The notes below the pieces were generated by a model. It was given only the letters and a program-made list of their open reading frames with translations. It made no database searches and had not been told where the DNA came from. From positions 1-64,000 of IMG/VR virus record IMGVR_UViG_3300044712_001062: DNA of 64,000 nucleotides. One strand, written 5' to 3'. Below are positions 23,216 to 33,977 of the stretch, one piece after another; position 1 is the first letter of the stretch, and every line of letters begins with the position of its first letter. This stretch comes from a virus. The translations under genes and the position numbers were made by a program.

Positions 23216-25510
23216 TTAGAACCACTTATCAAGATTGGTTTGACCTTTTATTGCGCCATCCCACTCGATATTAACTGCCCAGAAATATGACTGGAGTTTT
23301 GATTTTATGGTTTTATCTGCCATAGTATGCCAATCAATTTCATTGCGAATTTGTTCAGTATCAAATCCATCATCAATACAAATTACTTGATTATGCAGGA
23401 GATATATTAAGCGGGGTTTTTCACCTTCCTGGATAATATAATTGTAATTTTCTTTTGCGTAATCTCTGCCATTAACCCATGAATTTTTATTGTCATATGA
23501 TATTGCTCGAATTTCCTTTGGCATTGATATTGAGTAAATATCGGCAGTTCCATTCAATACATCATTGTATTTGTTTCGGACATATGATAGGGCTTTATCA
23601 AGATCACCGTCTATGATTGAAGTTGTTAAGAAGTATTTTAGGCAATCCTTGGTAATGTTTGAATTGTCTGATCGTTTTATTTCGAGACCCATGAATTTAA
23701 ATTCATTACAATCTCTACCTTCTTCCCAGATGAGATGTCCTGCATACTTTTTCTTTCCTGGAACATTTCTATTATTTGATTTTGGTTTGAATAGTAATCG
23801 CCTGAATAATTTTTCTGCTTTTAATGTGAAGTGTATTGACGAACCATTTTCATCTGACCACTTGGCAAGTTCTTCATTAAGCCACTTTTCAAGTTCAAGA
23901 CATTCGCTTCCAGTATGCACCTCTGAAATGAAAACGGAATCAGTATCTCCGTACGTTATGGTTTTAGAGCGAGATTCACATAGTTTTTGAATATGCCTAT
24001 TTAATTTTTGCCCAGTGGAAGTTATGAACAATGCTTTCTCCTTATCGTATAATCTCGATGATTTGGCTCCCATTATACCATACACACTGTTAACCAATGA
24101 CTTGGCTGAGGAATCCCTGGCAGATGCTCCAAGCAATCCTTGTTTCTTCTGTTCTCTGTAGACATCTCGCAAGTCCATTAACTTTTTTGTTGACTTTGCA
24201 ATTATGTTGTCAATGTCAGGTGATACATTGTAGCCTACAATGATGTTCGGGTATAAGGCATTTAAATCGACGTTCGCCACCCATTCGTGAATTCCTGACT
24301 GGGGCTTGACTACAAGTGCTCCTTCGAACTTTTCTTTTTCACCACCATACTTTTTACGAGGCATTGGTTTAATACCTTCATGCATGACATAAATTTCAAG
24401 AATGAGACTGTTATGAAGCCCATCCATGATTTTAGATCCTACGAGGACTCGTGTAGTCTCAAAGAAATTATATAACCCTAATTTTTTATCAATGGTTCGT
24501 AGTGCAATAACATCATTTTTACAATATTGAATGTATTCGACAAATCTCTTCTCATTTATTACTCTATCGAGTATAGGCCCTAAATCTTGATATGTGAATG
24601 CTGCATCTTTTAATAGATCTTTATCGGCTATAACAGATTTCAATCCATTTGATTCACGTTGCCCCTTTCCAATATTATATTTCTCAAAGGCTTCCATTTG
24701 GTCAAGGAATGCTCGTCCTGGAACATAACTGCGGAATTTTCCAGTCGTTGAATCATATTTAGTAGAACATTCACCATAACGTGATAACCCACTTAAATTA
24801 GTTCCAATGTTTGATGCTCGCTTAATTAAATATGGTAAGTCGAACTGATCAGAATTCCATGCAGCCATAATATCAGGATTCAATTCTGAAATATACATAG
24901 AGAATATTTTTAATAATTCTTTTTCACTCTCACAATATATTTGATCAGGATCATTTATATTGTCAATTTCAAATGTAAATACTGCAATTTTTTCAGTATA
25001 ATTATCCATAGTCTGAATGGAAACAATTGGATATTCTGAATCATAAGCATGAGGAAATATGCCCTCGGGAGATCTAACTTCAATATCAAAATATACTATG
25101 CGAGGATCCATTGGATGTTCTACATCAACTGGAATTGGTTTGTCATCAACTATTTCATATGCATATTTTATTTTATGATCGACTAAAAATCTTTTATCAA
25201 ATACCACATCACTTTCATCAGTCCAACTATAGATGTCTCGAACCTTGGGAACATCACCAGGGACTCGTACATTAACCCTACAAATCTCACGACCCTTTGC
25301 ATCCAATACAACATTCGGATCAACAGAAGTAATCAAGTGATGATGCTTGTGTGCTTCACTGGCTGGACAATAAAAGTAAGGGGTATATGGAAATGTATTA
25401 GTAATAGTTTCCATTGGATTATTATAATTTCTTGAATATAAATTAACGTAAGGTTTGTTGTCTTTGACGTGATAACCCGATTCCATTACAACCCAAATTT
25501 GAGTATCCAT
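23216..25510 (-). CDS. polB: Family B DNA polymerase with 3'-5' exonuclease
   Basis: 764 residues. Exonuclease: DIE (142-144, Exo I), NSDQFD (219-224, Exo II), YCKND (329-333, Exo III). Polymerase: motif A DLNALYP (415-421), motif B K-x3-NSVYG (474-478), motif C YGDTDS (520-525), and KKKYAG (thumb-proximal). All catalytic aspartates are present, so an active proofreading replicase is expected, using one or both clamps. Shorter than cellular archaeal PolB (about 780-900). TATA attttataaaat near 25531 gives a nearly leaderless start. Sits next to a large ncRNA candidate. Confidence 0.95.
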   Translation of the reverse strand: MDTQIWVVMESGYHVKDNKPYVNLYSRNYNNPMETITNTFPYTPYFYCPASEAHKHHHLITSVDPNVVLDAKGREICRVNVRVPGDVPKVRDIYSWTDESDVVFDKRFLVDHKIKYAYEIVDDKPIPVDVEHPMDPRIVYFDIEVRSPEGIFPHAYDSEYPIVSIQTMDNYTEKIAVFTFEIDNINDPDQIYCESEKELLKIFSMYISELNPDIMAAWNSDQFDLPYLIKRASNIGTNLSGLSRYGECSTKYDSTTGKFRSYVPGRAFLDQMEAFEKYNIGKGQRESNGLKSVIADKDLLKDAAFTYQDLGPILDRVINEKRFVEYIQYCKNDVIALRTIDKKLGLYNFFETTRVLVGSKIMDGLHNSLILEIYVMHEGIKPMPRKKYGGEKEKFEGALVVKPQSGIHEWVANVDLNALYPNIIVGYNVSPDIDNIIAKSTKKLMDLRDVYREQKKQGLLGASARDSSAKSLVNSVYGIMGAKSSRLYDKEKALFITSTGQKLNRHIQKLCESRSKTITYGDTDSVFISEVHTGSECLELEKWLNEELAKWSDENGSSIHFTLKAEKLFRRLLFKPKSNNRNVPGKKKYAGHLIWEEGRDCNEFKFMGLEIKRSDNSNITKDCLKYFLTTSIIDGDLDKALSYVRNKYNDVLNGTADIYSISMPKEIRAISYDNKNSWVNGRDYAKENYNYIIQEGEKPRLIYLLHNQVICIDDGFDTEQIRNEIDWHTMADKTIKSKLQSYFWAVNIEWDGAIKGQTNLDKWF

Positions 25511-25552
25511 AACTCATATATGATGTTTACATTTATAAAATAGAAGGATCTA

Positions 25553-26060
25553 AAATTTGTATACCACCAAAGGCCTGACCGCAGCAAGTCTTTGGGATTA
25601 CGATGCCACTGCTGTGATATACAAATACCCCATCCCGGTATGACCCAGAAACAGAGCAAGAGATCTAATTTCCTTTTAATTTGGGCGAGTAAATTAGATC
25701 TCTCCTAATTTCAGCGTTTCCCTGTCCAGATATGTAACGCCATACCAACGTTTACCTTCTGATAGCACTCCTACGGCGAAGGCAACCTGCGTGTCACGTT
25801 TGCTATCCAACGTACCGGGCCGATCCGTTTCACCCAGTAAACCACATCTCGATCCAATGATCGCATATCGGAAGTGGAGATACCCCCCAGATGGAATCGA
25901 ACCATCGAACCCGTATACAGGTTAACCGCCACTTTATAGGGGGAGTCCACACGGCTGGAATTGCACCACCTTAATAGAATATCACCAGTTCTTCAGCGTT
26001 GTCATGACACCGAACGGATTTTTCTACTGAATGCTTGATTACGTGTGGAAATTCGTATTA
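25553..26060 (-). ncRNA. Candidate ~500-nt structured ncRNA with tRNA-elbow-like domain
   Basis: No ORF on either strand; G+C clearly above the flanks. TATA cctttatatattt (26093-26081, - strand) predicts a start near 26060. Stems seen in - strand sense: 13-bp hairpin 25691-25703/25659-25671; 7-bp 25801-25807/25761-25767; CCGUUCGG at 26017-26010. A tRNA-like domain at 25874-25950: UCCCCC (25944-25939) with GGGGGG (25888-25883), extended by GUGGA/UCCAC, enclosing a perfect T-arm GATGG-TTCGATT-CCATC (25906-25890) and a short arm AACC..GGTT (25923-25908) with a UAUA-type loop instead of an anticodon. The 3' end can form interleaved helices 25567-25572/25590-25595 and 25582-25586/25610-25614. Confidence 0.65.
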
Positions 26061-26103
26061 CATACTAATGTTATACTTCAAAATATATAAAGGTTATGAT
26101 CGC

Positions 26104-26277
26104 CTATAACCCAATTTGAGTAATATAGTTTTTAAGGCAATATGAATTGCAAAATGCTAAATTACGATTAACCAAAACATTTGGTCCTGTGACAATTTCA
26201 ACTTTCTTAATATAAATGGAATGGTTTTTTAGCATTTCCATTACATTATCGCAAAAATCACAATGTTCTATTTTCAT
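26104..26277 (-). CDS. Small zinc-finger-like protein
   Basis: 57 residues. CDFC near the N-terminus and FCNSYCLKNY near the C-terminus give a C-x2-C...C-x3-C pattern like TRASH/MYM fingers, a type repeated elsewhere here (for example 43347-43556, 49210-49434). ATG 26277 overlaps the helicase stop as ATGA; ends just before the promoter of the large ncRNA. Confidence 0.55.
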   Translation of the reverse strand: MKIEHCDFCDNVMEMLKNHSIYIKKVEIVTGPNVLVNRNLAFCNSYCLKNYITQIGL

Positions 26278-32858: not shown

Positions 32859-33680
32859 TCAAAAGAACTTTACGCCGGTTCGCTCACTAATAGCAGCCTT
32901 GATAGAATCAAATGTTGGATTCTCAATCTCAAATCCCTTAAGATTACCATAATTAGTGCCAGTCACTTTAAAGATTCGCTTATCTCCAATCATCATGACC
33001 TCGCCATAAAATTCAAAGAGATAACCACTACCTTTCTTTGCATCCATTATTTTGATGCCAGTATCTCCTTCATTATTAAACACACTTTTCATCCACATCG
33101 TGCAAACCAAATTCATCTTCGTTTGCTGGAGTAATTCACCAATGGTAAGATATTTGGCCTTTGCCTTTCCATACTCAAACATATATGGCTTTCCAGTCTT
33201 TGGATCTTTCTTGACAGTTGGTGAGTTTTCAAACCAATCCGCGACCCATTGTGACACCGATGAATAACTATCAAATACAATGGTTCCCTTTTCAAGATTC
33301 TTAACTTTCTGCAAAACATCGTGAATATAATCAATGGCCTTGACCTTATCAAAATCACCATTCTCATCACGAACTTTCTGCATGATATTTACATAATAAA
33401 CATCAGTGAGATCTCCCATCTGTTTAAGTGTAATGTCCTCTTTATTTTCAGTGCTAAAGATGTAAATTGGCCTTGGAACATTAAAAGCCAGCGTACTCTT
33501 GCCGCATTTGTCATCTCCATATATCCCAAGTTTAAAAGATCTCACACCAGGAATATTTACCGCTGGTTCAAAATAATCCCCAAATGGATTAGAAGATCCT
33601 ATACCCTTCTCAACTTTTGGAGAATCAACAACCTTCGATGGCGCTGCCTCCTTAACATCGCTTTCTTCCCATTTCGTCAT
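32859..33680 (-). CDS. Phage RecA-like ATPase (AAA_24/Sak4-type)
   Basis: 273 residues. A disordered N-terminus (1-35), Walker A GDDKCGKST (55-63), YIFSTENK, Walker B GTIVFDSYSSV (about 120-130), a late TIGELLQQTKMNLVCTMW strand and C-terminal lid. Phages with such genes use them for ssDNA annealing/recombination (Sak4) beside SSB and nucleases. The neighbours (nuclease, OB-fold-like protein) support that role. Confidence 0.8.
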   Translation of the reverse strand: MTKWEESDVKEAAPSKVVDSPKVEKGIGSSNPFGDYFEPAVNIPGVRSFKLGIYGDDKCGKSTLAFNVPRPIYIFSTENKEDITLKQMGDLTDVYYVNIMQKVRDENGDFDKVKAIDYIHDVLQKVKNLEKGTIVFDSYSSVSQWVADWFENSPTVKKDPKTGKPYMFEYGKAKAKYLTIGELLQQTKMNLVCTMWMKSVFNNEGDTGIKIMDAKKGSGYLFEFYGEVMMIGDKRIFKVTGTNYGNLKGFEIENPTFDSIKAAISERTGVKFF

Positions 33681-33683
33681 GTT

Positions 33684-33839
33684 AAAATTCCACTACTAAA
33701 TTTTTAGTTTGTAGAATATAATGTTGTCTTTGATTAGATATAAAGATAGTGTATACAATGTAAGTTATAAAAGTTAAAATCGAAAAATAAAATGTTTAAT
33801 CATCAAAGCGCGAAAAAATAATAAAAAAAGTTAAAGTAT
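33684..33839. other. Noncoding gap upstream of the RecA-like gene
   Basis: About 155 bp, A-rich, containing TAATCATCAAAGCGCGAA (about 33797-33814), a near-repeat of the motif at 31874-31891. No ORF or strong stem. Confidence 0.4.
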
Positions 33840-33977
33840 TCAATATGCATAGAGTGCTTTAGTGATGTTCAAAATTGTTGTTGATAAAGTAAGCAACTCA
33901 TCAAAATCACCACTAATTGATTCTCCCTTCATTCTTTCATAAAGAATATTGAGAATTTCATCACCAATATCATTCAT
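33840..33977 (-). CDS. Small hypothetical protein
   Basis: 45 residues, acidic amphipathic helices (DEILNILYERM, DELLTLSTTILNITKAL). ATG 33977. Unknown. Confidence 0.45.
   Translation of the reverse strand: MNDIGDEILNILYERMKGESISGDFDELLTLSTTILNITKALYAY

What the first reader, a model, noticed from the sequence alone, without database searches (positions are those of the whole stretch)
25553..26060. A ~500-nt GC-richer noncoding region: large structured RNA with a tRNA-elbow mimic
Between polymerase and helicase genes lies half a kilobase with no ORF, its own TATA box and many stems, including a perfect 13-bp hairpin. An internal domain has an acceptor-like helix, a canonical T-arm (TTCGATT loop closed by 5 bp) and a minimal arm where the anticodon arm should be, so it imitates a tRNA elbow without an anticodon. 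Ends can form interleaved helices. Large ornate RNAs of unknown function (GOLLD, ROOL) occur in bacterial phages, often near tRNAs; an archaeal-virus counterpart would be new.
Basis: partly seen in the sequence, partly recalled or inferred. Interest (0 to 1): 0.85.

Follow-up and report, generated by a model that had tools for sequence, protein, structure and literature searches.

The report
Archaeal virus RNA with tRNA mimic
Between two replication genes of an uncultured, apparently archaea-infecting tailed virus lies a half-kilobase unit with its own promoter that probably makes a structured noncoding RNA containing a small imitation of a tRNA without an anticodon; a related virus has a similar element, but transcription and function are untested.

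Summary
The observation largely holds. Window 25553-26061 (minus strand) is noncoding and the most GC-rich noncoding stretch of a 135-kb tailed-virus record: GC 0.46, against 0.327 +/- 0.031 (maximum 0.39) in other noncoding 400-nt windows. An archaeal TATA box predicts a start near 26061, and polB behind it has its own TATA box at the leaderless position. The 13-bp perfect hairpin is the only one of at least 12 bp (loop under 40 nt) in the genome. Rfam, phage, plasmid and IMG/VR searches found no sequence homologue. The 61-nt tRNA-like element (25883-25943) has a 7-bp acceptor, a GG-bearing D-like strand, a 6-bp mini-arm and a canonical T-arm; chance gives about 5e-5 per 500 nt of this composition. 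A relative (terminase 51%, PolB 43% identical) carries another anticodon-less tRNA-like element in its own most GC-rich noncoding stretch. Limits: overall folding energy is no better than shuffled sequence (z -0.87); the tRNA-like fold is favoured only with short flanks; homology of the two RNAs and covariation are unproven. GOLLD/ROOL membership is not supported. The closest analogue by anatomy is mascRNA/menRNA, so I favour an RNase P/RNase Z processing signal. A decayed viral tRNA is the main rival.

The parts
26084..26091 (-). TATA box of the RNA unit; predicted start near 26061
   Evidence: genome-wide TATA peak at -32 to -25
25553..26061 (-). predicted noncoding RNA
   Evidence: GC outlier, no ORF, flanked by two independent TATA boxes
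25947..26049 (-). 5' domain closed by the 8-bp helix 26042-26049/25947-25954
   Evidence: fold, z -1.73
25883..25943 (-). tRNA-like element: acceptor 25937-25943/25883-25889, D-like strand with GG 25924-25936, 6-bp mini-arm 25908-25923, T-arm 25890-25906
25659..25703 (-). 13-bp perfect hairpin, 19-nt loop; only one of its kind in the record
25555..25626 (-). 3' terminal hairpin closed by a 13-bp helix with one G-T pair
25533..25540 (-). separate TATA box of polB, 30 nt before its ATG (25510)

Best explanation
The stretch is a separate noncoding RNA gene of an archaeal tailed virus, transcribed on the minus strand from the TATA box at 26091. The roughly 508-nt transcript has a 5' domain, a tRNA-like element without an anticodon arm, and a 3' part with strong hairpins. 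The element's T-arm, the GG of its D-like strand and its acceptor stem imitate the tRNA elbow. The most likely role of that imitation is to recruit host tRNA-processing enzymes (RNase P cutting before 25943, RNase Z after about 25882), so that the RNA is matured into defined pieces, as MALAT1 and MEN-beta are at mascRNA and menRNA. Shown: composition outlier, promoter geometry, presence and improbability of the element, a comparable element in a related virus. Inferred: transcription, the fold within the whole RNA, processing, and any role of the pieces.
For: GC outlier; own TATA and a separate leaderless TATA for polB; unique 13-bp hairpin; tRNA-like element with about 5e-5 expected per 500 nt of local composition; with the shortened-spacing definition 0.03 (G000) and 0 (G001) expected per simulated genome, one locus observed in each; the G001 element sits in that genome's most GC-rich 160-nt noncoding window; anatomy close to mascRNA/menRNA, whose elbow is recognised by RNase P and RNase Z (PMC11693755).
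Against: Whole-region folding energy ordinary (z -0.87); in the full-length model the tRNA-like fold is a minority; no transcription data; sequence alignment with G001 not significant overall; in G001 the element is not next to polB and its acceptor has one mismatch and is weakly predicted; no encoded CCA; no element found in G002-G004.
Confidence: 0.4

Rival explanations
1. A decayed viral tRNA gene: the virus once carried a tRNA here, the anticodon (or D) arm was lost, and T-arm and acceptor remain without function inside or beside another feature.
For: The record also holds a true tRNA-Gln, so tRNA genes come and go in this virus; a 15-nt stretch matches the tRNA-Asn anticodon arm at 14 of 15 positions; T-arm plus 3' acceptor gives a 25-nt match to a phage tRNA-Phe.
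Against: The tRNA-Asn match is reached by 20 of 300 shuffles; acceptor pairing is intact at 7 of 7; a second virus has the same kind of loss in its most GC-rich noncoding DNA; the GC-rich unit is eight times longer than the element.
Confidence: 0.25
2. A structural or scaffold RNA of the GOLLD/ROOL sort in function: the RNA acts whole, uncut, and the tRNA-like element is a docking site for a tRNA-binding host protein or an RNA contact.
For: Size of about 500 nt, no ORF, viral location, several strong hairpins.
Against: No Rfam match; no homologues for covariation; ordinary folding energy.
Confidence: 0.12
3. A cis element of DNA or mRNA: a structured leader of polB, or a replication origin with inverted repeats beside the polymerase gene.
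For: Position directly upstream of polB; inverted repeats.
Against: polB has its own TATA box 30 nt before its ATG; cumulative GC skew has no turning point near 25.5 kb; no iterated direct repeats.
Confidence: 0.1
4. The tRNA-like arrangement is a chance pattern picked out by eye in GC-rich noncoding DNA of other origin, for example recently acquired host DNA.
For: No homologues; motif chosen by eye; ordinary folding energy; given a T-arm, an acceptor with GG turns up in 1.7% of simulations.
Against: Chance rates; independent element in G001; unique 13-bp hairpin.
Confidence: 0.13

Closest known systems
mascRNA / menRNA, the tRNA-like elements of MALAT1 and MEN-beta
   Same: About 57-61 nt; 7-bp acceptor; canonical 17-nt T-arm; reduced D part with two Gs; anticodon arm replaced by a longer stem with a small loop; part of a long noncoding RNA (PMC11693755)
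   Different: Those are mammalian 3'-terminal elements with shown RNase P/Z cleavage; here the element is internal, viral, archaeal by inference, and cleavage is untested; no sequence relation claimed
tmRNA tRNA-like domain
   Same: Acceptor and T-arm with an unpaired D-loop and no anticodon arm (own knowledge of tmRNA)
   Different: No tmRNA call by ARAGORN at default settings; a 10.6-bit Rfam scrap covering the T-arm only; no credible tag reading frame; not at the RNA ends
GOLLD and ROOL RNAs
   Same: Large noncoding RNA of unknown function in a tailed virus
   Different: No Rfam match; smaller; no tRNA island in the window; no covariation-supported structure

Membership tests
GOLLD / ROOL | match to the Rfam covariance models | tested here: not met
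   no match at gathering score or E up to 10
GOLLD / ROOL | near a tRNA island | tested here: not met
   no tRNA in the 64-kb window; nearest ARAGORN calls are over 50 kb away
tRNA | full cloverleaf with anticodon | tested here: not met
   ARAGORN none; 30 nt between acceptor and T-stem against 41 in the true tRNA-Gln
tmRNA | tRNA-like domain at the RNA ends plus tag frame | tested here: not met
   relaxed ARAGORN gives only an unidentified tag
mascRNA-like tRNA mimic | acceptor and T-arm, two Gs in the D part, compact arm in place of the anticodon arm | tested here: met
   one search compared with PMC11693755; as a fold it is favoured only with short flanks
mascRNA-like tRNA mimic | cleavage by RNase P and RNase Z | not testable with these tools
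   needs biochemistry or RNA-seq
Conserved structured RNA family | covariation across homologues | tested here: inconclusive
   one possible counterpart (G001), not alignable above chance; no other homologue

The most novel reading that the evidence does not exclude
A family of noncoding RNAs of archaeal tailed viruses that carry an anticodon-less tRNA mimic used to capture host RNase P and RNase Z for their own maturation, a prokaryotic-virus parallel to MALAT1/mascRNA, diverged beyond sequence recognition between G000 and G001.
Probability: 0.25. Interest if true: 0.8.

Novelty: new variant of a known kind. Interest (0 to 1): 0.5.

Why it matters
Few noncoding RNAs are described for archaeal tailed viruses as far as I know (own knowledge; two targeted paper searches, brought up none by title or abstract). 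An RNA that borrows the tRNA elbow would suggest that viruses of archaea use host tRNA enzymes to process their own RNAs, and would give a simple 61-nt substrate for testing what archaeal RNase P and RNase Z need to see.

Tried and rejected
Rfam at gathering and relaxed thresholds: only chance-level matches; the Plastid-ycf2 match is the antisense of the T-arm. BLASTN against phages and plasmids: a 25-nt T-arm match to a phage tRNA-Phe and a 43-nt chance match. IMG/VR scans with PolB, UvrD, terminase, PolB alignment and tail-protein alignment: one good relative, three distant. A loose pattern for the element hit ordinary tRNAs whose anticodon arm contains AGTGG; the specific pattern hit nothing. 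GTDB genome scans with terminase alignment and NrdD: no relatives, host not identified. ARAGORN with relaxed limits gives many meaningless calls. Derivation from tRNA-Asn: not significant. Replication origin: no skew turning point. Shared 8-mer GTGGTTTA 35-37 nt after both elements and GCATTCAGT in the upstream parts: noted, but the downstream alignment is not significant (169 of 500 shuffles) and the upstream one marginal (10 of 500). G002-G004: no element found, but those records may be incomplete.

Full report
Setting. The window is bases 1-64000 of a 135,061-base virus record. It encodes family-B DNA polymerase, a UvrD-like helicase, anaerobic ribonucleotide reductase, an ERCC4-type nuclease, RuvB and a tailed-virus structural module. 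Two lines point to an archaeal host. TATA-like boxes pile up 25-32 nt upstream of start codons, as expected for leaderless archaeal transcripts (49 matches in those 8 positions, against roughly 5 to 12 per 8 positions in most of the flanking bins; a similar peak in relatives G001 and G002). The full-length PolB matches that top the phage list are haloarchaeal tailed viruses, at about 25% identity. The host itself was not identified.

The stretch. Between a 57-aa ORF (stop at 26104) and polB (ATG at 25510) lie about 590 bases without a credible reading frame. GC is 0.46; other noncoding 400-nt windows average 0.327 with sd 0.031 and reach at most 0.39. Long, GC-rich intergenic regions in AT-rich genomes are the signature used to find structured RNAs in bacteria (PMC8632094). 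The TATA box at 26091 predicts a start near 26061, and a second TATA box at 25540 lies 30 nt before the polB ATG. The stretch therefore looks like an independent unit on the minus strand and not a polB leader, although read-through is possible.

Structure. The 13-bp perfect hairpin is unique in the record, and its segment folds clearly better than shuffled sequence (z -3.12). A 13-bp helix closes the 3' end. The whole region, however, is not more stable than shuffled sequence of the same dinucleotide content (z -0.87), so the case rests on composition and motifs and not on energy.

The tRNA-like element. Bases 25943 to 25883 read CCCCCUA-UAAAGUGGCGGUU-AACCUGUAUACGGGUU-C-GAUGG-UUCGAUU-CCAUC-UGGGGGG: acceptor, D-like strand with GG, 6-bp mini-arm, T-arm, acceptor. 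A scan for acceptor plus T-arm plus GG finds only this and the true tRNA-Gln in the record; 0.2 are expected per strand of a simulated genome and 5e-5 per 500 nt of local composition. The T-arm carries most of this improbability: given a T-arm, a perfect acceptor with GG turns up in 1.7% of simulated cases, and imperfect inner acceptor matches are common in real tRNAs. With flanks of 0-60 nt the acceptor is favoured (0.73-0.94) and the T-arm about even with alternatives (0.39-0.46); in the full-length model the element is 2.5 kcal/mol above the minimum and competes with an AAGUGG/CCACUU helix. Such models ignore tertiary elbow contacts, so this is undecided.

A counterpart. The one good relative in IMG/VR (G001; terminase 51%, PolB 43% identical) has nothing similar upstream of its polB. 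A genome-wide scan for canonical T-arms found two places in it, one on the strand opposite polB and one in a noncoding gap. The latter, G001 74095-74157 (L016:14095-14157), reads as acceptor (6 of 7 pairs), U8-A9, 4-bp D-arm with a GG loop, then only about 11 nt before a 5-bp T-arm. D-arm and T-arm are strongly predicted with short flanks, the acceptor weakly (0.43 at best). Given a T-arm, this combination arises in 5.6% of simulations. Its surroundings are the most GC-rich 160-nt noncoding window of that genome (0.444; mean 0.256, sd 0.050; runner-up 0.438). Infernal aligns it to tRNA-Sec with the anticodon arm missing, below threshold. So two related viruses each have an anticodon-less tRNA-like element in their most GC-rich noncoding DNA. 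Sequence alignment does not prove common descent.

Interpretation. By anatomy the element is closest to mascRNA and menRNA, in which the D-loop/T-loop elbow recruits RNase P and RNase Z and the anticodon arm is replaced by a longer stem with a compact loop (PMC11693755). I infer that the viral RNA uses the same trick to be cut by host enzymes. By the tests made it is not a tRNA, a tmRNA or a known GOLLD/ROOL RNA. A decayed tRNA remains the main rival. None of the functional steps is shown.

Noticed in passing
L002:14755-14925 (record 78755-78925, + strand): Second candidate structured RNA: GC-rich (0.45) noncoding rod closed by a 16-bp end helix, folding z -2.5, beside an RNase H gene.
   Followed up: partly
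L002:14211-14274 (record 78211-78274, - strand): C/D-box-sRNA-like sequence (ATGATGA ... CTGA with a GGCA/TGCC terminal stem); a dozen C/D snoRNA models match below threshold. A virus-encoded modification guide would fit an archaeal host; guide targets not examined.
   Followed up: no
L002:13579-14489 (record 77579-78489): A 911-nt stretch with no ORF of 50 aa or more, holding an unlikely ARAGORN tRNA-Leu call that Rfam does not support, and a T-arm-like hairpin at record 77961-77977.
   Followed up: no
G001 33560-33900 (in L014): The other GC-rich noncoding stretch of the relative, nearly equal in GC to the element-bearing one; no T-arm motif found.
   Followed up: no
L002:6451-7380 (record 70451-71380, - strand): A RuvB homologue with N, lid and C domains, to my knowledge a bacterial-type protein, in a virus whose promoters look archaeal.
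   Followed up: no
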